Assembly: GCA_947561395.2 (NCBI GenBank)
Contig: OX387184.1
Location: 5,766,001 to 5,830,000, forward strand
DNA: 64,000 nucleotides
Direction: 5' to 3'
Source of the DNA: Buxus sempervirens
Lineage: Eukaryota > Streptophyta > Magnoliopsida > Buxales > Buxaceae
The notes beneath the pieces are model-generated. The model ran no database searches, was not told the DNA's origin, and saw only the letters and a program-made list of their open reading frames with translations. Shown piece by piece: positions 3,701 through 31,750 of the stretch. A program made the position numbers and the translations under genes. Each line of letters opens with the position of its first letter. The first letter of the stretch is position 1.

Positions 3701-4592
3701 AATTAAAGACGTAATATGACATTAAAAAGACCAATATTGTCCTGCATATTAGGGATTGTGTTTCGAATGCATAAGAGTAGGTTAGTCTTTAATTAATTAG
3801 TAAATAAACAAATAGATAAAAATCGGCGCCTGAAAGCTGAAACTCACCTTTACGGCAAGGTGTACCGGCGTTGAATCCGTCTCCTTCGAATCCTTCATTA
3901 CATCGGCACCGGAATCCTGGCTTTCCATTGACTGGCGAAACGATTTGCGTGCAATTCGCATGTGCAGAGCAGTCGCAGGAGCCCTCTAACCACCATCCCA
4001 ACTGAAGAGTCTGAAACTCCAGTGAAACCAGAGAGTTCTTATTTGCATCCGCGGCGATCGAAGAAAAAAAGAGGCCACAATTGCTTTCGCTCACGTTAGC
4101 GTAAGACATGAAGATCTTCTTCTGTTTGTCTTGTCCGGAAAAGCAGCTTAGACTTTCGTTTCTAGGAGTACAGTCCTGCAACTTTATACCAGCCTGAAAC
4201 AGAGCCCTCGGAATCACGCATCCGGATAGAGCCGAGCTACAGTTCTGTAGCAACAGACCGTTTTGCCATGTCAGCGCGTAGTTTGGACCGAAGAGATGCT
4301 TCAGGCTTCCGATAGGGCGGTTGCAACTGGGTGGTATATTGATCAAGAGACTATCTGCGGTTACGTTCTGGACTCGGAAATCACCGAGTTTGAAATCACC
4401 GCTTTTCGAACAATTTAGACGGATTTCGCAGCCCTCCGAGAAACCAAAAGGATACTGAACACGTTTGCCTTTGCCGTGGCCGCAGTATCTGTTGCAGTTG
4501 CTTGAGGTATTTCTAGCGGTGATCAGAGGGAGAACGATGATCGCAGCGACAGCGAGGAGGACCAAATTTCGTTGGTATAAAATCATCTTCAA
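757..4592 (-). CDS. WAKL14: Wall-associated receptor kinase-like protein, WAKL14 type
   Basis: Transmembrane receptor Ser/Thr kinase expected at the plasma membrane/cell wall interface. Three exons join in frame: 3848-4592, 2890-2967 and 757-2045, all with GT-AG junctions, giving about 703 residues, close to the roughly 700 expected. Residues 1-27 look like a signal peptide. Next come a Cys-rich GUB_WAK-type region (YPFGFSEGC) and an EGF-like segment ending near residue 248. A membrane helix lies at about 275-293, followed by basic residues. The kinase has a glycine loop LGTGAYG (340-346), VAIK Lys362, HRDIKSSN (456-463) and DFG (476-478), so it looks active. The tail motif SVQDPWLSEQSSPS matches my memory of Arabidopsis At2g23450. 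No lesions were seen. Subfamily assignment rests on the tail motif and overall order. Confidence 0.92.
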
Positions 4593-20584: not shown

Positions 20585-20900
20585 AGAGGTTCCTGCGAGG
20601 GGTGGTGGTGGTGGTTTGGTCGGTGAAGGATCTTGAAGTGGTTTCGACTTTCGAGAGTTGTGCCTTAAACCCAATGGTTTTTGCCGGAAAAACTAGGGGT
20701 GGTTTTTTGCCTTTTTCTGCACTGACCGAGTTAGCCTTTAAACGGGACGAATCCACGAGTTAGGAATGACCCATCACCCTGCTTTACATCCATCAATACT
20801 TAATATATAGAGCTCTGCTTGACATTTTATACCTAAATTTCTTCCCCCCTAATTGATTGCCTCAAACTAAAACAATTAAAATTTGAACCAGGAAATTTAC

Positions 20901-21021
20901 CTGAGGACAAGAATCTGCTCCAGCAGCAATGGCAGCATCTACTTCCCTCAGTACACTCTTCCAATCACCAATCTTTTTGGCATCAGAACATCTGCTCACA
21001 TGCCTCTCCAATACTTGCAAC
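20901..21021 (-). pseudogene. Orphan exon of a TTL-type TPR-thioredoxin-like gene
   Basis: A 121-bp exon with intact AG acceptor (GCATAG) and GT donor. It encodes a segment with CSDAKKIGDWKSVLREVD and AAIAAGADSCPQ, the signature I remember from the middle TPR region of plant TTL proteins (tetratricopeptide-repeat thioredoxin-like). No neighbouring TTL exon was found: downstream lies the small unrelated gene and upstream the transposon gene. It is therefore a gene fragment, perhaps captured or moved by the adjacent Mutator-like element. It is not a working gene by itself. Confidence 0.7.
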
Positions 21022-21522
21022 CTATGCATGGGCTGGAACTAAAGGATGAGATTCATAAAGAACCCATTTCCTTTGCAAAAAGGCAGTGGTGGTCACGTGG
21101 GTTCAAATTGAGATGTCTGAAACAATATAATCCTTCATTATGCACAAACATAGTACAAGAAGCATATGATTAAAATAAACTTCAACATATTGAGCAACTG
21201 AAAGAAAGAATTACAAATGTCCAAACAAACTTATTCATTGGTATTATGATGTGAAAGGGGGAAAAACAAAAATATAATAGTATACGAAACATTCACTTGG
21301 GAGCACCATGCTACCTGTAGCCTTTACTCCCAAATGATAACTTGATGGAGATTTCACAAAGCCAGTCTTCTTCCTCATTTTGCACCTGGACCTGCATTCA
21401 CAGACACAAACATTGACTTAAGTAACTATAAAGAACAAAGACGAAACAAAACCAAGTTTGAATGACAAGAACAGTAAGCACATGTCGTGAAGTATTTATA
21501 CAATTCTACTACGACTATGTAC

Positions 21523-23279
21523 CTACAAGACTTGGTTCTCGGAACCAGGTCTAGTGCGGAACATACCATCTTGCCTACCCATTTGTGATACATAAGCGAT
21601 AGCCATCTTATACTCGTCTTGCATCATGCGCAATGATGCACGCATGCGATCCAAAACTTTTTGGGATGCCTAACAACAAAGTATTCATAATTTAGAACAT
21701 TGTAAAACATGTCAACAACGCCGATGACCAACGTAGGGGGTGACAAGTCTTACCGGATCAATCCCTGGAATAGGTCCTTCATCAACATCTCTATCTCCTT
21801 CCTCAGCATGCACCGTGAGTGCCACCACCTGCATCGACTACACTATATTAATAGTCCATCCACAATAGACCATGAAGAATATGAAGGGGCATATAAAATG
21901 ATGGTTTACCTCCCCATTGCTATAGCTGCCCGCTGATTTTTCAGCCTTCTCCCGTGCCTTCACACGATCGTCGTCCCACCACCCCAGACGTGGCGTTGGA
22001 CGACTTGATTCAATATCACCAACGCGTACAACTTTATAGTAGAAAAGCTGAAACACGACATAAAATATGGGAAGTCATGGTGTTTTCAGCATATACTTGT
22101 CGCCTTGAACCAATACAACGAAACAACTAAAAACAAATCAGAGACGAACATACCTGTAAAAATAGGAGGCATCCACCAATGTTGGTTTTTTTTTCACTCG
22201 ATATTTCACAATTTCATTAAACAACACATCAAGTACAAATGCACCCCAATTGTACTGCCCAACCCTACTAATATTAGCTACGGCATACAAAAAATGAAGC
22301 TTCACGTGTGGGTTCGAATCCGGGCATAACAAACATCCCACAAGAAATAGTACAAATGCCTGTTGAAAGGCATGGCCGGACCCTAGAGTGGCCAATCTGG
22401 ACTCTATATCGTTTAGTGCTATGCCATGCCTATCAAAAGTAAAGCTTGCACGAAGCTGGGCAAGCTGCTCAATGGGACCATCTATGACAACCTTGGGCCC
22501 TTCGCTCCTAAGGCCCAAGATGGTACTTACAGCGGCGGGGGTAATGGGGACAACCGAGGAACCAATCCTCAAACTACGACTATGTACATCGATGTGGTCT
22601 ACTAACCAGGCGCAAAGCTTCACACATAGGGATGTGCAGCGCATCTGGAGAAGAGAACCAAATCCTATCTCAACAACTACACGTCGCTGGTCCTCGTCAA
22701 GCGAAGTCACGAAATGCACAAATCGCTTTGGGGAGCATCTTGTTCCCAGAGACGCCTACACTTAGACCAACATGTGTTAGTATAACGCAACTGCATACAA
22801 AACATTCATAATGTTCAAGAAATCAAGTTATACCTTTCCTCTTATTTTTCCTGTTAGAGTCGGGGCCGCTTCCAACCACTCTGTCCTCCTATCATTGTAT
22901 AAATCTTTGTACTTCTGCTTCGCACCATCATCCATTGCTTTCCATAGCCGTTGTGCCTCTTGGGTGATCTACAAAATAGTGATGCAACTATATTTATTAC
23001 AATTGACACTGTAAACATTATCAACTAATATATAGCACTTTAACCAACTCACCGTCGTGACATTTATGGAAGACCTACTCTCCCGAATTGTTTTAAGGTA
23101 CTCATTTCTGTAAGAAGTAAGCATAACATTAGAAATCCACTTAGTTCGGGTTTGGAGAGTAAAACAACAATGCTTTATCAGTTTATACTTCATCACCTGA
23201 ATATGAGGAAGGCGTTGGCAGGACGCGATGGGCCACTAGAAGAACTACCGGACACAACATCCTTCTTGTTCTTACCCAT
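21523..23279 (-). CDS. HMG-box plus plant-mobile-domain-like protein (transposon-associated, one frameshift)
   Basis: Seven exons in consistent phase: 23197-23279, 23053-23107, 22834-22968, 22154-22755, 21910-22047, 21754-21828 and 21523-21669, all GT-AG, about 411 residues. Residues 18-90 form an HMG-box-like unit (SRPANAFLIFRNEY, then RLWKAM and KQKYKDLY), closest in style to MATA-type HMG boxes. The next part, with FVHFVTSLDEDQRR, TPAAVSTILGL and NWGAFVLDVLF, resembles the plant mobile domain/DUF1985 group found in Mutator-like elements. Exon 4 carries a one-base frame error in a run of nine A (22186-22194). Frame on both sides is otherwise coherent, so it may be decay or an assembly error. 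It lies about 460 bp behind the transposase on the same strand. The function is unknown; DNA binding is inferred from the HMG box. Confidence 0.72.
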
Positions 23280-23738
23280 TATTCAGCTGCAACTAAAATA
23301 ATATAACTCACGGATACTAAAACCAAGGAAGGTTAGTAGTAATTACATACCAGGTAAGATTACAAACACAAACAGTCATAGTAAGGCAACATTACAACTA
23401 CCCTAGGTCATAATAAACACAAAAACATGTTTCACAATGCAACTAACAAACCACCAACGTTGGCAGTAAAATATGTTTCACAACCAACATATTTCACAAT
23501 GTTACTAACACGACTATGTGGCCAACTAGTTCTTCATAAAACAGTAATAAAAATAAGGAATCGTGGGGTTGTTGATCAAATCTTGCCACATACTACGACC
23601 CCGAGCAAAACACATCGCGCCAACCTGCAAATTAGACGTCGGTAAGTCAAAGTTAATTACAGGCTACAGCAAGAACTTAGATGCATGAATAGATGTAAGG
23701 TGGACTACAACAACCTGCACATTATACCATGCCAGTCT

Positions 23739-26027
23739 CTATATTGAAGCTCTGCAACTTGCTCGGTTGTGTTCAACACCCTTGCATCTGGAACAATGAA
23801 CCTGTCGCTTGTCTTGGAATTGCGATTCAATGCGCTTCTGCTTAGGGCGCCCTGGACGCCTTGCTGTCTTTGGTGGGAACGAGATAGATGGGGTTTCACT
23901 TGAATCTGCTACGGAAACCACGTCGATGTCCTCAACCATGGGGAAGTCATGTGTTGGCACAGCATGCATCAATTCGTCGTATATCAACCCTTGCGTTGCC
24001 TTGTGGTAGCATAGGTTGACAAAGTCATACACATTGAGCCTTACCAAGTTCAGGACGGCACATGCGTGTGCATAAGGAATGCCCACCATCTGCCACTGTT
24101 TGCACATACACTCACGACGGGTTAAATGCACCATGATATAGATCTCATCACCTCTAACTTCGTATTTGTGTTGCCCACATTGAATGACACCCAGCCCCAA
24201 TGCTCTAGTGAGATTCTCCTGAATCTTGGCATCAATTCGACCACCGACATTGGACGCCCACGTGTCAATACAACTCCGCTTCCTCACCAATAGCTCTGTC
24301 AGCTTCACTCGATGTGCATCAATAAACCGCATTACAGGCAATTTCCTTTCTTCCACCATCCAAGCATTGAATGATTCCGCTAAATTTGAATTCAGCTTAT
24401 CCCACCGTTTCATAGGGAACAATGAATTGGCCCAATGTTCGGGCCCATTTCTCCTCACCCAATCAGCTAGGTCAGGTGCATATTCATGCATGGCAGCCAA
24501 TGCCTTATCGTAGTCCCGAGGGAGCCTTGCGTAAGCAATATCATCAAGTAACCGTAAGGCAAATTTCTTTCCCTCCCTCAAATGAAAGGATCCAACGAAT
24601 TTACTAAAGTTTTCCTTCAGATGTCGAAGACAATGAGAGTGGTTCCTAGCGCCAAAGGTAGCACTTACTGCAGTTATAATGCTTTGATTCCTATCACTTA
24701 CAATGACTAAATCCTCTCTGACATCTATGGATGACTTAAGAAGTTGTAGAAACTACATCCAATTCTCATTATTCTCAGCACTAACAATTGCAAAGGCAAC
24801 TGGAAACATGCCGTCATCAGCATTGAGGGCTGTAGCAGAAAGCAACGTGCCCTGGTATGGCCCGCTGAGATGACTTCCATCAATGAACAGCAGTGGTCTG
24901 CAACCGACCGCAAATCCCCTCAAGGAACAACCATAAGCAATAAACAATTGCTTAAATTTTCCATCTTCACTTGCTGCCCAACTTGCCATTGTGCCAGGAT
25001 TGGTCTCTTGCAGCCGTTCACACATCCATGAGATGAACTTATAAGACTCCTCCACATTACCATCTATCCTCTGTTTCGCCTTTTCCTTGCTCCTCCAACA
25101 TTGCTGATATGTCAATGGCATTGCATGATCATGATAAAAGTCCTTGCCAATTTGTCGTGGCAAGTAACTTGGAGTGTTCCTAATTGTCCTCTCAATCACA
25201 CCCGAAAGCCACTTCGTTCTCACAACCGGTTTCATAGACAATTGCTCTTGGGCTGAGTGTTTATGCTCCTTCACAAACTTCATCACCCTCATAAAACTCG
25301 TATCCCTCACACGTCTTGCAGTTACCTTCCAAGGACAATCCGTGCCTGCACAACGGACACTAATGTATGCTGGAGAATTTTTTTCATCACATATTCAAAC
25401 CTATTGGCAATGGCATGCTTGTACACTGCTTCTCTAAACTCCTTAGGGCTCTTAAATATCTGGTCGACCTCAGTAATTGCATCCTGCCACAGGCTAGATA
25501 CAAGCGGACCTCTACTGACTTCAGTGCAACTTTCAAGAAGCGGAGTCTCCCGATCCTCTACTTCATCGTCATTGCACGGAAGTACGGAGTGACCACTTAA
25601 AGGTACACTCGTCCTGAAATTACAAAATATATGACTATCATTACATGTAATATGGAGGAAACATAATCCCATGTACGGTTAATGAAAATTACCTCTGACA
25701 AGTGTCTCTTTCTTGTGATGATCCTTCATCATAATAGACATAAATGTTGGCCCAACCCTCGTTGTAGCGAAATAGGTACGATAACGCATCTTGATCAGTG
25801 AGTGCCAGTAGAACGCTCTTGTCAAACTTGACTGAGTACTTCATACTTACACTCACCAGGGATATATTCAATAACCGACAAACAGTTTCAACTACCTCAG
25901 TATAATTCATGTTGCTATTTAGCTCAATACCCTTACTACTTCCCCCACTATACCCCATTGACCCATCTTCCTTCGTGATTACTTGTCCTCCAATGTGACA
26001 AAAACAGAATAGAATCTCACCTGACAT
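23739..26027 (-). pseudogene. Mutator-like (MuDR-type) transposase, decayed
   Basis: Two exons (25693-26027 and 23739-25613, GT-AG). Domain order is typical: an N-terminal PB1/MuDR-like region, the Mutator DNA-binding region (CAGTDCPWKV), a MULE transposase core with the first Asp in FIDGSHLSG and the second in VIVSDRNQS, then a SWIM zinc finger and a CCHC knuckle (CSRCKGVEHNRASC). Lesions: a frameshift in a seven-base A run (plus-strand T at 25378-25384), an in-frame TAG at 24753-24755 where the family has Trp, and Tyr instead of the third SWIM Cys (GIPYAHAC). It is unlikely to make active transposase. Confidence 0.9.
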
Positions 26028-26066
26028 TGTGCACTGTCCAGCGAATTGAAATATTAAATTCTTCAT

Positions 26067-27640
26067 ATTAAAGTATAATGGAAAAAATCTAATTTGAAAT
26101 ATTACAACATACTAAAATAAATATGACTCACAAGACAAGAATACATAGACAGATCAGGTATGTCAGTCAATTCCCCTCAAATTAATTGAAGACAGATGTT
26201 GGGGAAGACTTTAGACTAAAAAAAATTGTAAATAAAAAATAAAGGTTGTAGAGTTAAATTTTAATTCTATTTCCCTAGTAGGAGGTTTTCACTTCAAAAC
26301 AACTACCAGAAATAGAAACAAGAGAAAAAGACTTTACAAATATTTGGTAACAAAGAATTATTTTCACAATCTACCATTATTTCTTTTGTAAAAATATTTC
26401 AAGGATCCATAAGTTATAAATTTTGCGGAAGTCATTAAAGATCCATCAGGACCATCGCAAACTATACCATAGAAAGGAACAAGATTTAGATGATGCAAGG
26501 AACTTAATACCAAATCTTCCTTCTAGAAATCTACAATTTTGTCATAGATGAATATAAAGAGTCAGTTCACTGCAAATAAAAAGCTATAATAGCACCTGTA
26601 ATTTTGACATAATTAAGAAATCAATTATAGTTGGATCCAAGCAATATGAATGTATAAATGATTAGAACCCATATTCCATTACAACATTGCTCCTGACAAA
26701 ATAGGACTTCATGTCATTAAATCATTCTTTCCTACCAGACTTGAGTATGAAGAAATAAAGAATATTAAAAATGACAGCACAGTCTGATTGCTGAATAATA
26801 ACTGCACTACATTTTGACACATCAATGAAATCAGGCTTAAAGGAGCAAACATTGATACCCAGAAAAATTTGTGAAAGTAATCCACAAACAAATACGACAA
26901 TCATGTTATGTTTTTGCATTGCCAGTCGAATCAAAGCTATTGGTCACATAACCACATGCTGGCTCGAAATCTATCAACAAAAGAGACCAATTAAATGCAA
27001 CATACTGCTATTAAACTGGATCACCAACAACTATTACATTTTAATGGCTTATGCGGATGAAATGCGGAATGTTTCTCTCAAAAAATCAATGGTAAACAAA
27101 ACTTAATCCAGAAACAATAAAATAACTGCAAGAAAGTGGGTTACATCTTATTTTTAATGCATATTAGGTGACTGCAGGTAGCGTTTCAACAAAACTAATG
27201 ACGTTGATTAATTTTCCAATAATAAGGATTTTCATGCTTGAATAAAAGAACTACTGGACCTTGAGGGAAAAGAATTTAAGAGGGCCTGACATTGCCTTTA
27301 GCACCCCATAACCAATAAACCCAACCCTTCAGAGGCACCAGTCTAAAACAATGACAAAATAAAAAATAAGTGAAACACCATTTTCCTACATTAACAGAAT
27401 CTCTTTACAAGGATGCTTGGCTGACCAAATACATCACAGTGGAAATCCCGGTGTGACAATTTCTACAAATGTTAAATGAGTTGGCAAGACTCGTCTTGTC
27501 CATGTGCTCGTCCAAAGTTGCAGCCAGAAACACATCTACTATGCGGAAAAACCAGCCTCTTTTCCAAATTTCTTTTTCTTTGGCAAAATACTAGGAAAAG
27601 TGTTAAAAACAAAAAACTTGAGACCACACCGTACGAATAA
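26067..27640. other. AT-rich non-coding stretch upstream of the transposase
   Basis: No convincing ORF or structural element. It should contain the upstream end of the Mutator-like element, but I could not locate it. Confidence 0.4.
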
Positions 27641-28163
27641 CACAGGACAATTCAAGGTATGAATAGCACATTTCCAACCAAAAGCACAAAATCCTGTCTA
27701 TGTGGTTGGTAAGATCCAAAAGAATTGATCACAAATGTGCGTGCACATATGCTTGGTGAAATACATATGTCTAAGTGTACTTGTGGTGATGTTTCAGAAT
27801 CAAAACATTCACCACATAGCAGGTAGCACAAATGATTTTGATAAATCTAATATCATTTTTGTGCATAACTTTAGAAAACAATTCCAGAGCTGTTTTTATG
27901 CATAAATAAATCTACAAATATGTATTAATGTGGTCCATATGAGTTGAAATAATGTCCATATGGTTTATATCAGGGTCCCATTAGGTGGATGATTTGGATC
28001 AGCCAAATGAAACATCTAGCTAAATACTAAGAAGCTTATTTAAAAACAAAAAACTTAATGACTCTACTGTAACTAATAACAGAATGATTCAAACTATGAA
28101 TAATTGAATATCACATTTGCCAAGCAAAGCGCAAAATCCTATCTTAATAATTAACAAGAATAC

Positions 28164-29423
28164 TTCTTGTTTCATTTGGTAACGTGGGAATCTATTTGTA
28201 AAAAGAAAGAGGAGGGGGGTCTTGGGTTGAGGCCACTAAAGTTATTTACCAAAGCTTTAATGCAGACGTGGATTTAGAGATATGGAATTGAAAAGGAGAA
28301 TCTTTGGAGGAAGGTCATTCACTTGAAGTATGGCTCATCATTTGGGGATTGGTTCCCGAGGCAATCAAAAGACATATATGGGGTAAGTTTGTGGAAACCT
28401 ATTGCAAAGATGAGCGCTTCAATTGCGAAAAATTGCAGATTTTTAGTTGGTGAGGGTAAAGTTTGGTTTTGGTTGGACACTTGGTGTGGAAACCGGAGCT
28501 TAAAAGATAAGTTTCCCACTCTTTTTAATATATGTTGGGACAAAGAAGCTACTGTCAAGGACTACTTGGTTAGCACCGGGACTGATATAGTGTGGAACAT
28601 TATTCTAAGAAGAAATCTCCTAGACTGGGAGGTTGTTAACTATGAAGATTTACTGAAAGAACTCTACAGTACTAAGCTGAACCAAGCGGAAGACGTGTGT
28701 TTCTGGATAAAAGGAGAAAAGGGAAGATTCTCTGTTAAATCAGCGTTTGAAACTTTGAATTCTACTGGTCTTACGTTTATGGAAAGCAAGCTGATTTGGG
28801 TTAAGGCTGTGCCAAGCAAAGTGGCTTTCTTCATGTGGGTTGCTTCCTTGGACAACATCCTAACAGTAAATCACTTGAAAAGTAGGGGATGGCAGCTTCC
28901 GAACCGTTGTATAATGTATAAACTTGACGAAGAATCAATGGAGCACCTTTTAGTCCATTGCAAGGTTGCAAGCTATATGTGGAATACAGTTCTAAGCAGA
29001 TTTGATCTGAAATGGGTTCAGGCAGAAAAATTTGATGAAGTGTTGCAGACATGGGGGAAGAAGTTTGGGCAGTCCAAGAAGGCCCCGGTGTGGAACTTGA
29101 TCCCTGCGGCAAATTCTTGGGTGATTTGGAATGAAAGGAATAATAGTATTTTCAGAAACCTTGAGAACAATGTGAACTTCCTGGAGAAGAAAGTCCTGTT
29201 ACTGATCTATAAGTGGTTAGAATCAGAAAAATTGATGGCCACTGTATCCTTGGAAGAGTTCTTAACATGTGATAAGTTCCCAGATTAGTAAGGGAGGGGA
29301 TTGCTTTGTTTCTAATTTCCCTATTCCTAGTCTTAGGTACACAGATTGTGTACCTATTCAAAAATGTCTTTCTCTATCTAAGTTCATAATATATATATCA
29401 TCTAGATTACTGATCAAAAAAAA
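28164..29423 (+). mobile_element. 5'-truncated LINE with target-site duplications
   Basis: Flanked by direct copies of AATTAACAAGAATAC (28149-28163 and 29424-29438; 13-15 bp depending on poly-A overlap). The 3' end carries a poly-A of about nine bases after TGATC. Only the C-terminal part of the reverse-transcriptase ORF is present, as expected for a truncated target-primed insertion. It sits inside the middle unit of the surrounding tandem repeat, so it is younger than that array. Confidence 0.9.
28215..29288 (+). pseudogene. LINE reverse transcriptase, C-terminal (zf-RVT) fragment
   Basis: In-frame similarity starts at GGLGLRPLKLFTKAL, which follows the reverse-transcriptase core in plant LINEs. 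It continues through FLVGEGKVWFWLDTW to a zf-RVT region (WVKAVPSKVAFFMWVAS, then HLLVHCKVASYMWN). An in-frame TAG at 28275-28277 replaces what is usually Trp. The 321-residue open part begins at 28323 and ends at 29288. The polymerase catalytic half is absent, so this cannot mobilise itself. Confidence 0.9.
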
Positions 29424-30839
29424 AATTAACAAGAATACAAGACCCAAAGATCCAACAGGTTCATTTAGAATCCCATCTGTCCATGTGTACTTTTAGTAAT
29501 GTTTCAACACTAAAAAAGTTATCATACAGCAAAAAGTGTTCTCCTGAAACTAACACCGTTATTGTGCTTAACTTAAAAGATTAAACAATTTCATGACTTT
29601 TGTTATATGTAACATAACCTATTAATACGGGTTGCAATAATGTCCATATAGCCTATATAAGGCCCATTTAGGTGGATGACTTGGATCAGCAACATGAAAA
29701 AGTAATTAAAAACAAAACAAAACAAATAAATTTAATGACTACCATACATACTAAAACATTGAGCATAAACTGGCCTACATCTTTCTAAAGCCGGATCCTT
29801 TTTTGAAAATTTGGTAAAGCAGGGTCTTGATAGGAGCCAATTGACAACAGACCTAATATTTAGCATTTTTATGCACAGTCATTGTGCTTAGACTTGAACT
29901 TGCCTTGTCGCACTAGTAATCCAAGGCTTGTTCCACCACACCTAGTGATGTTCCCCACTCTATCATAACTAATAAAGCATCAATACCACATTGCCAACCA
30001 AAGTCCAATTCCTATCTCTATGTTAATAAGATCCAAAATATTTTATTTTATTTGTATGCATGTACAAGCACGCTTGGCAAACCCTATTTGTCCATTTGTA
30101 CTTCAAAGGATGTGTCAAAACCAAAACTTTCACTAAATGGCAGAAAGATCTCTCCCAAATCTAATGCCATTCTTGGTGCATAATTTAAAAAATTAAACAC
30201 TTTCATGACTATCGTTATATTGAAAAGAAAAATCTATTAATATGTATTAATAGAATTTGTATGGGTTGAAATGATGTCTACATGGCATATAGAGGAGTCC
30301 CTTTAGCTGGATGCTTTGGTTAGCCACATCAGACATCTATGCAGAAGAAAAAGCCATTCTCAGCATGTAACTAAACAAAAGTACCATCATCAGTACATAC
30401 ATGTAATTTGCACAGAGATGGGGATGAAGGAGATCAATATATGATAAACAAGCATGCATTTAAGAGTCCTTATTTAGATATATAGATACATATGTGTATG
30501 TGTGTGCGCATGCGTACTCTGAAGTGTGCCTCGCATTCCCTTGTAGTTTGTGCACAGCCATTCATGATTCTAAAAATCAGAAAGCCAAAAGTGACTAAAT
30601 TGTTTGCCATTTTCCCAATTAATAAACAATCAATAGAGCTTTACTAAAAAACAATGGAAACATGAACTTGTACTCACCTTGTTTGTTAAAGCCTTCCTTT
30701 CTATCCTTTTATTGCTTTCAATTTTTATCCAATTGAGTTTTATTTTACCAATCCAGAGAAGAAGATGATGAAAGGGCACTTGAAGTGAACAAGAAGAACA
30801 GAATCATTTAAATTCAAGCCATTTCTACAACAAGATTAC

Positions 30840-31750
30840 CATTTAAATAGGTGCAAATATGCAAATGCGCAAATTCAAATTCAATTTCCCAAAATCAAAT
30901 TCAAAGGAGGCACTCGGCAGCTACCTGGTCGCCAACGGCAGCACTCCCTACGGCGACGAACAGCAACTTCGATGAGACAGCAAGGTTGCCCTCGGCAACA
31001 CTCCACACCGCAACGAAAACCAACTTCGATGAAACAGCAGGGTCGTCGACGGCAACAAACTTCAACCGCGGTGGCTCTCCAACGACGAATGCCTCAATGT
31101 GTGCAAACAGAGAAAGGGGTTTCGATTACAGAGGGTTACTTAACGACGGAGAGGGAAACAATGCACGAAACAAATGGAGGAGGAGAGGGTTTCGTCGAGG
31201 TAGCGAAGGGGTTCTTGGAGAAGAATAGATCAATGGGGAAGGAGAGTGGGGGAAAGCTGGTCGGCGTTCGTCGGCCTTGAAGAAGACCAAAATCTGAGTG
31301 GAAAAACCACTCGCATTCGCCGGCGAAGAGAGGAATGGGGGAATGAGAGGGTTTCACCCTTTTGGAGAAGAAGATGAGAATGGGTCGGGGTTCGTCGGCC
31401 TTGGAGACGAAGCAAACTTGCTCCGGCAACAACCCTAGCTCGCCGGCGAAGAAAGGATTCGTCGGTCGTTCGTCGTCGGCTTCGGGTTTAGGGTTTCGCA
31501 GGGTTTTCGCACAGGAGTTTCGCACAGGACAAGAGGAGAGGAGAGGAGAGGAGAGGAGAGAACGACGGCACGTGCAATGGCCCCCTTATATTCAAGGGCA
31601 TTTTGGGCATTGCAATTTTCCCAAATGTGCAATGACCCCTTTCTGGCAATAATTCTCAAAAGTGGCATGTTTTTGAAATTAAGCATCTTTATGGCATGTT
31701 TTTGTAATAATCGCTGTAAAGTAGCCTTTTTTTGAAATTTTCCCAATAGG
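30840..31750. other. GC-rich repeat-like region, no gene assigned
   Basis: From about 30910 to 31590 the base composition is far more GC- and CpG-rich than its surroundings. Internal near-repeats occur: AACTTCGATGA(A/G)ACAGCA at about 30966 and 31022, GTTCGTCGGCCTTG at about 31267 and 31389, and CGCCGGCGAAGA at about 31319 and 31440. The segment ends with GGAGA repeats (31540-31560) and an A/T-homopolymer block that finishes in GAAATTTTCCC. The long ORFs on both strands are low-complexity. It may be the end region of a Mutator-like element or a decayed first exon; I cannot decide. Confidence 0.4.

What the first reader, a model, noticed from the sequence alone, without database searches (positions are those of the whole stretch)
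21523..23279. HMG box fused to a plant-mobile-domain-like region, carried behind a Mutator transposase
Hand-spliced exons give an N-terminal MATA-style HMG box (SRPANAFLIFRNEY...RLWKAM...KQKYKDLY) running directly into a mobile-domain/DUF1985-like region. I know of MULEs with a second Ulp1- or mobile-domain gene, but not with an HMG box. A DNA-bending HMG module could act as an accessory factor for transposition or targeting. The HMG box is split over three exons in consistent phase, so it is not a chance match.
Basis: partly seen in the sequence, partly recalled or inferred. Interest (0 to 1): 0.8.

Follow-up and report, generated by a model that had tools for sequence, protein, structure and literature searches.

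The report
HMG-box gene inside a jumping element
A plant "jumping gene" family, present in many copies in this genome, carries a helper gene that joins a DNA-bending HMG box to a plant mobile domain; a related gene, usually fused to a third domain, is an ordinary conserved gene in many flowering plants, so a transposon helper and a host gene share an origin here.

Summary
At 21523-23279 (minus) lies a 7-exon gene whose first three exons encode an HMG box (Pfam 4e-12) running into a plant mobile domain (PMD). It is no stray neighbour of the transposase. In the window's own 676-Mb genome 40 of 40 scored matches are near full length at 92-100% DNA identity (window included), and in 30 of 30 fetched loci the homology runs on into the transposase gene. 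One copy is a complete 19,186-bp Mutator-like element with a 9-bp target duplication and 1.15-kb inverted repeats. The window copy is truncated and broken; 7 of 30 copies keep all seven exons open. The PMD exon is clearly constrained between subfamilies; for the HMG exons this is not shown (they diverge faster than their introns). Distant loci of the same genome have the same gene layout. The HMG-PMD fusion is also an annotated, uncharacterised eudicot protein, mostly with a SINA domain. A 21-bp tandem array lies downstream in 29 of 37 testable copies, as VANC targets do in VANDAL elements. Best reading: a VANC-like anti-silencing gene with an HMG box as DNA-binding module. Element, gene and domains are shown; function is inferred.

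The parts
20835..31744 (-). truncated copy of a Mutator-like element (MULE); left part lost at 20835, right terminus intact at 31744
   Evidence: homology to other genomic copies starts at 20835 in 5 copies; they share more sequence to its left that the window lacks; right end TGAAATTTTCCC followed by different flanks in window, L011, L016, c30, c34
21523..23279 (-). HMG-PMD gene, 7 exons, this copy with a frame lesion in exon 4
22834..23279 (-). exons 1-3 (23279-23197, 23107-23053, 22968-22834): HMG box
   Evidence: PF00505 4.1e-12; no length change in 30 of 30 aligned copies, but the introns between hardly change length either; dN/dS 0.33, yet exons 1 and 3 diverge faster than the introns beside them
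22154..22755 (-). exon 4: plant mobile domain core; strong donor at 22153
   Evidence: PMD 5.9e-7 on residues 93-345; 1.6e-12 in L030; dN/dS 0.25 and lower divergence (0.030) than six introns around it (0.029-0.100) save one; intron just before TRCS also implied by Vitis MULE gene models
21523..22047 (-). exons 5-7 (22047-21910, 21828-21754, 21669-21523): end of PMD region and C-terminal tail
23739..26111 (-). MULE transposase gene, broken by an internal stop near 24754 and a frame slip near 25390
   Evidence: MULE, DBD_Tnp_Mut; mostly 36-50% identity to Vitis MULE proteins over the main pieces; open over 646 aa in the complete copy on C8
30794..31744 (.). right terminal inverted repeat region of the element
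   Evidence: matches both ends of the complete copy in opposite orientations, 86-98%
28278..29285 (+). LINE remnant (zf-RVT) inside this subfamily of the element; about 26777-28623 is absent from L011, L016, L017
   Evidence: PF13966 4.9e-22

Best explanation
The gene is the accessory gene of a high-copy Mutator-like element family. SHOWN: it encodes an HMG box joined to a plant mobile domain; it moves with the transposase inside one element; its PMD exon is constrained between subfamilies; more distant loci of the same genome have a PMD gene behind a related transposase with HMG exons read between them. INFERRED: it works like VANC of Arabidopsis VANDAL elements: the protein recognises the 21-bp tandem repeats in the element's noncoding region downstream of the gene (HMG box binding and bending DNA, PMD giving specificity or contacts) and strips silencing from its own family. 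INFERRED, weaker: the eudicot HMG-PMD-SINA gene descends from such a MULE gene that became fused to a SINA-type gene.
Confidence: 0.57

Rival explanations
1. The HMG-PMD protein is a transposition cofactor: the HMG box bends element ends so that the transposase can pair and cut them, as host HMG proteins are recalled to do for other DNA transposons; the 21-bp array is incidental or a transposase site.
For: HMG boxes bend DNA (established knowledge); gene moves with the transposase. [quoted passage not shown]
Against: The array lies kilobases inside the element, downstream of the gene, not at the ends. In Vitis gene models the same slot is filled by a PMD-like region without HMG, so HMG seems not to be needed for this transposase type.
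Confidence: 0.25
2. The MULE captured the host HMG-PMD-SINA gene (without SINA) as cargo, Pack-MULE style.
For: Host proteins with the same fusion and near gap-free HMG-to-PMD spacing are widespread; this family carries what look like host gene fragments.
Against: Introns are kept, and loci diverged to about 45% share the gene, so any capture is old; the PMD slot next to the transposase also exists in Vitis MULE models with matching junctions; no fused host gene was found in this genome: best PMD match 43% among 71 of 2,503 candidates scored, and the one SINA homologue examined, on C10, reads as a RING gene without HMG-PMD. The trees do not settle direction.
Confidence: 0.2
3. An unrelated host gene that happens to lie beside a MULE.
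For: No element ends could be found around 20-28 kb of the window itself.
Against: 30 of 30 fetched loci share gene and transposase end; complete element with target duplication.
Confidence: 0.01

Closest known systems
VANC genes of VANDAL MULEs in Arabidopsis, and Ulp1-bearing KIU genes / KI-MULEs
   Same: further gene of a MULE besides the transposase; PMD/DUF1985-type region; tandem repeats in noncoding parts of the element; an Ulp1-like piece in reverse orientation, as in KI-MULEs
   Different: HMG box at the N terminus; PMD rather than DUF1985 by Pfam; Ulp1-like piece apart from the PMD gene, whereas KIU genes are VANC genes with an Ulp1 domain; long terminal inverted repeats, whereas KI-MULEs are described as non-TIR
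Eudicot HMG-PMD-SINA proteins (uncharacterised, e.g. P0001, P0061)
   Same: HMG box and PMD in the same order and near gap-free spacing, 29-37% identity to the window protein
   Different: extra SINA zinc finger/TRAF-like part; close to each other across eudicots (62-77% to P0061 in the 34 others aligned); no such fused gene found in this genome
Grapevine MULE proteins with PMD-like region and Ulp1 (P0124, P0126, P0127, P0129)
   Same: transposase mostly 36-50% alike, PMD-like region next to it, junction before TRCS
   Different: no HMG box in the gene models; Ulp1 in the same model and orientation (for P0124 and P0127; listing for the others)
MULE-captured PMD-C genes in grasses and Amborella
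   Same: PMD associated with a MULE transposase (PMC5418596, section 11 read)
   Different: reported there as fusions with the transposase; no HMG in the paper's main text (term count)

Membership tests
Mutator-like element (MULE) | MULE transposase domain | tested here: met
   MULE (below cut-off in each broken half) and DBD_Tnp_Mut (31 bits, cut-off 25) hits; Vitis MULE relatives, best E 2.7e-184
Mutator-like element (MULE) | 9-bp target site duplication | tested here: met
   TATTTTAAA on both sides of the C8 copy; not testable on the truncated window copy; no other copy had both ends reached
Mutator-like element (MULE) | terminal inverted repeats | tested here: met
   1,154 bp at 99.9% in the C8 copy; one end only in the window
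HMG-box protein (PF00505) | score over the family cut-off | tested here: met
   46.8 bits against 25.4; L030 46.1
Plant mobile domain (PF10536) | score over the family cut-off | tested here: met
   47.7 bits against 34.9 in copy L030; the window copy alone 27.9, below
VANC / KIU anti-silencing genes | DUF1985 over its cut-off | tested here: not met
   16.4 bits against 35.1; no hit reported in L030
VANC / KIU anti-silencing genes | same fold as VANC21 | tested here: inconclusive
VANC / KIU anti-silencing genes | tandem repeats in noncoding region of the element | tested here: met
   21-bp array downstream in 29 of 37 copies; absent from the truncated window copy
VANC / KIU anti-silencing genes | loss of methylation on own family | not testable with these tools
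   no expression or methylation data
Eudicot HMG-PMD-SINA gene | SINA zinc finger after the PMD | tested here: not met
   no hit of the hosts' C-termini in the window (120 proteins, E up to 0.01); the SINA homologue examined on C10 is a separate gene

The most novel reading that the evidence does not exclude
MULEs of this plant evolved an anti-silencing factor that uses an HMG box to recognise 21-bp tandem repeats in their own noncoding DNA, and the conserved eudicot HMG-PMD-SINA gene is a domesticated descendant of such a factor, fused to a SINA-type ubiquitin-ligase gene in place of its RING.
Probability: 0.33. Interest if true: 0.85.

Novelty: new variant of a known kind. Interest (0 to 1): 0.66.

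Why it matters
It gives a MULE accessory gene a recognisable DNA-binding module and a candidate target (the 21-bp array), so that sequence-specific anti-silencing can be tested outside Arabidopsis. It also suggests an origin for a conserved eudicot gene family. In the searched library (open-licence PMC) no paper held HMG-box together with plant mobile domain or DUF1985 (0 papers each); the rows seen in broader searches were on other topics (20 of 98 listed). The host family was not searched under its SINA name.

Full report
OBSERVATION. Pfam finds an HMG box at residues 17-82 with E 4.1e-12, well over the cut-off, and a PMD at E 1.6e-6, below its cut-off; DUF1985 is at 0.009. The sequence matches among solved structures are nearly all HMG boxes or HMG-bearing proteins (42 rows at E up to 1; best BBX, 4.7e-6). 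The HMG box is spread over exons 1-3.

THE TRANSPOSON. A joined transposase plus HMG-PMD query gave 21 hits, 20 of them Vitis proteins, mostly MULE transposases by their Pfam column. Several Vitis gene models run from transposase into a PMD-like region (P0127: 27% identity over window residues 93-360, E 1e-22 in a database of these 21 proteins) and then into an Ulp1 protease. Pfam itself finds no PMD in that Vitis region. Different upstream pieces of these models join just before TRCS, which is where the window's exon 4 starts, and an alternative junction falls before the residues matching window exon 5 (read by eye). The Vitis models show no HMG box.

THE OWN GENOME. The window lies in an unnamed 676.5-Mb assembly. 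The HMG-PMD gene as DNA has 40 matches among 109 candidates (40 scored), all near full length at 92-100%, the window's own included. In 30 of 30 fetched loci (window included) the homology continues through about the last 1 kb of the transposase gene to the edge of the fetched locus, and in six copies followed further it runs on to 26.2 kb or beyond. The right end is sharp, TGAAATTTTCCC, with different flanks in the window (31744), L011, L016, c30 and c34. For the copy on C8 both ends were reached: 19,186 bp (G000:C8:7383273-7402458), the same 9 bp TATTTTAAA on both sides, and inverted repeats of 1,154 bp at 99.9%. The window copy keeps only the right end and stops at 20835, where other copies go on. 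The C8 element also holds an Ulp1-like piece on the opposite strand (E 1.9e-6 and 3.6e-7 to Vitis Ulp1 parts) and stretches that read like ABC-transporter, sugar-transporter and bZIP exons (names recalled from motifs, not searched).

IS THE GENE ALIVE? In the alignment of 30 copies (window and 29 others), 4 have a stop in the HMG exons and 1 has lost the start codon; exons 1-3 change length in none, but introns 1-3 hardly do either (1 of 30, 0 of 30, 0 of 30). The window copy is out of frame in exon 4; 7 of 30 copies read all seven exons with GT-AG borders. In one of these (L030) the PMD passes its cut-off (47.7 bits) and exon 4 ends GGCLLFLQ as in the host proteins. Between 13 and 11 copies (six of the 30 left out) dN/dS is 0.33 (HMG), 0.25 (PMD), 0.39 (rest); pairs are not independent and no test was made. 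Against the HMG figure: its dN, 0.062, is no lower than the divergence of introns 1-3, 0.053, and exons 1 and 3 (0.085, 0.100) diverge more than those introns (0.029-0.067), while exon 4 (0.030) is slow. So constraint is clear for the PMD and not shown for the HMG box, which may simply evolve fast. The window's transposase is broken; the C8 copy has a 646-residue open frame there, though its own HMG-PMD gene is not open (L034).

AGE. P0061 against the genome gave 74 matches (71 of 2,503 candidates scored): PMD matches at 38-43% plus three short ones at 42-45%, and two SINA matches at 49-50%. Of ten fetched loci, three (L044, L049, L052) have a transposase end 58-64% like the window's about 1.2 kb upstream of a PMD at 41-45%; in the other seven no transposase was matched within the fetched flank. 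HMG exons with the same three-way split are read by eye in L044, L049 and L045; hand-joined, L044 scores E 4e-7, L045 only 0.009, below cut-off; L049 was not scored. L003 on C3 is a further HMG-PMD gene, cut short, with no transposase match in 20 kb (HMG E 3.8e-11). So HMG-PMD looks like an old MULE gene here rather than a recent capture. The SINA homologue examined on C10 reads as a RING-type gene with no HMG-PMD match in 9 kb (RING read by eye). In a tree with the L030 frame the host and MULE clades are sisters with Vitis set as outgroup, which fits descent of the host gene from a MULE gene; long branches and missing taxa leave direction open.

VERDICT. The finding is real and better than stated in one respect (a true, repeated, partly intact mobile element) and less unique in another (the HMG-PMD fusion is also a conserved eudicot gene). 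New variant of a known kind.

Noticed in passing
G000:C8:7383273-7402458 (loci L034, L056, L057, L059): The complete element also carries stretches that read like ABC-transporter, sugar-transporter and bZIP exons, as in gene-capturing MULEs (names recalled, not searched).
   Followed up: partly
G000:C8 copy, element positions 4180-4317: Ulp1-like piece on the strand opposite to the HMG-PMD gene.
   Followed up: partly
L003 / G000:C3 around 14967300-14968240: A further HMG-PMD gene with the same HMG exon split, cut short in the PMD, no MULE transposase match within 20 kb.
   Followed up: partly
L053 (G000:C10:34413000-34421999): Gene reading as RING-SINA, with no HMG-PMD match in the 9 kb, about 50% like the SINA part of the eudicot fusion; a second SINA match at C10:34425156 was not examined.
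   Followed up: partly
window 22834-23279 in 30 aligned copies: HMG exons 1 and 3 diverge between subfamilies faster than the introns between them, with high dS (0.19); unexplained.
   Followed up: partly
window 28278-29285: LINE remnant (zf-RVT) nested in this subfamily of the element.
   Followed up: partly
window 23424-23448 and 23486-23510: 25-nt direct repeat (88%) between transposase and HMG-PMD gene, near the start of the latter.
   Followed up: no
window 21508-21522 and 22573-22587: Identical 15-bp words ACTACGACTATGTAC, a third partial one at 23505; weakly above chance.
   Followed up: no
G000, contigs C1-C15: 47 of 100 listed 21-bp-array hits lie away from the 37 copies tested; they may mark other or truncated members.
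   Followed up: no
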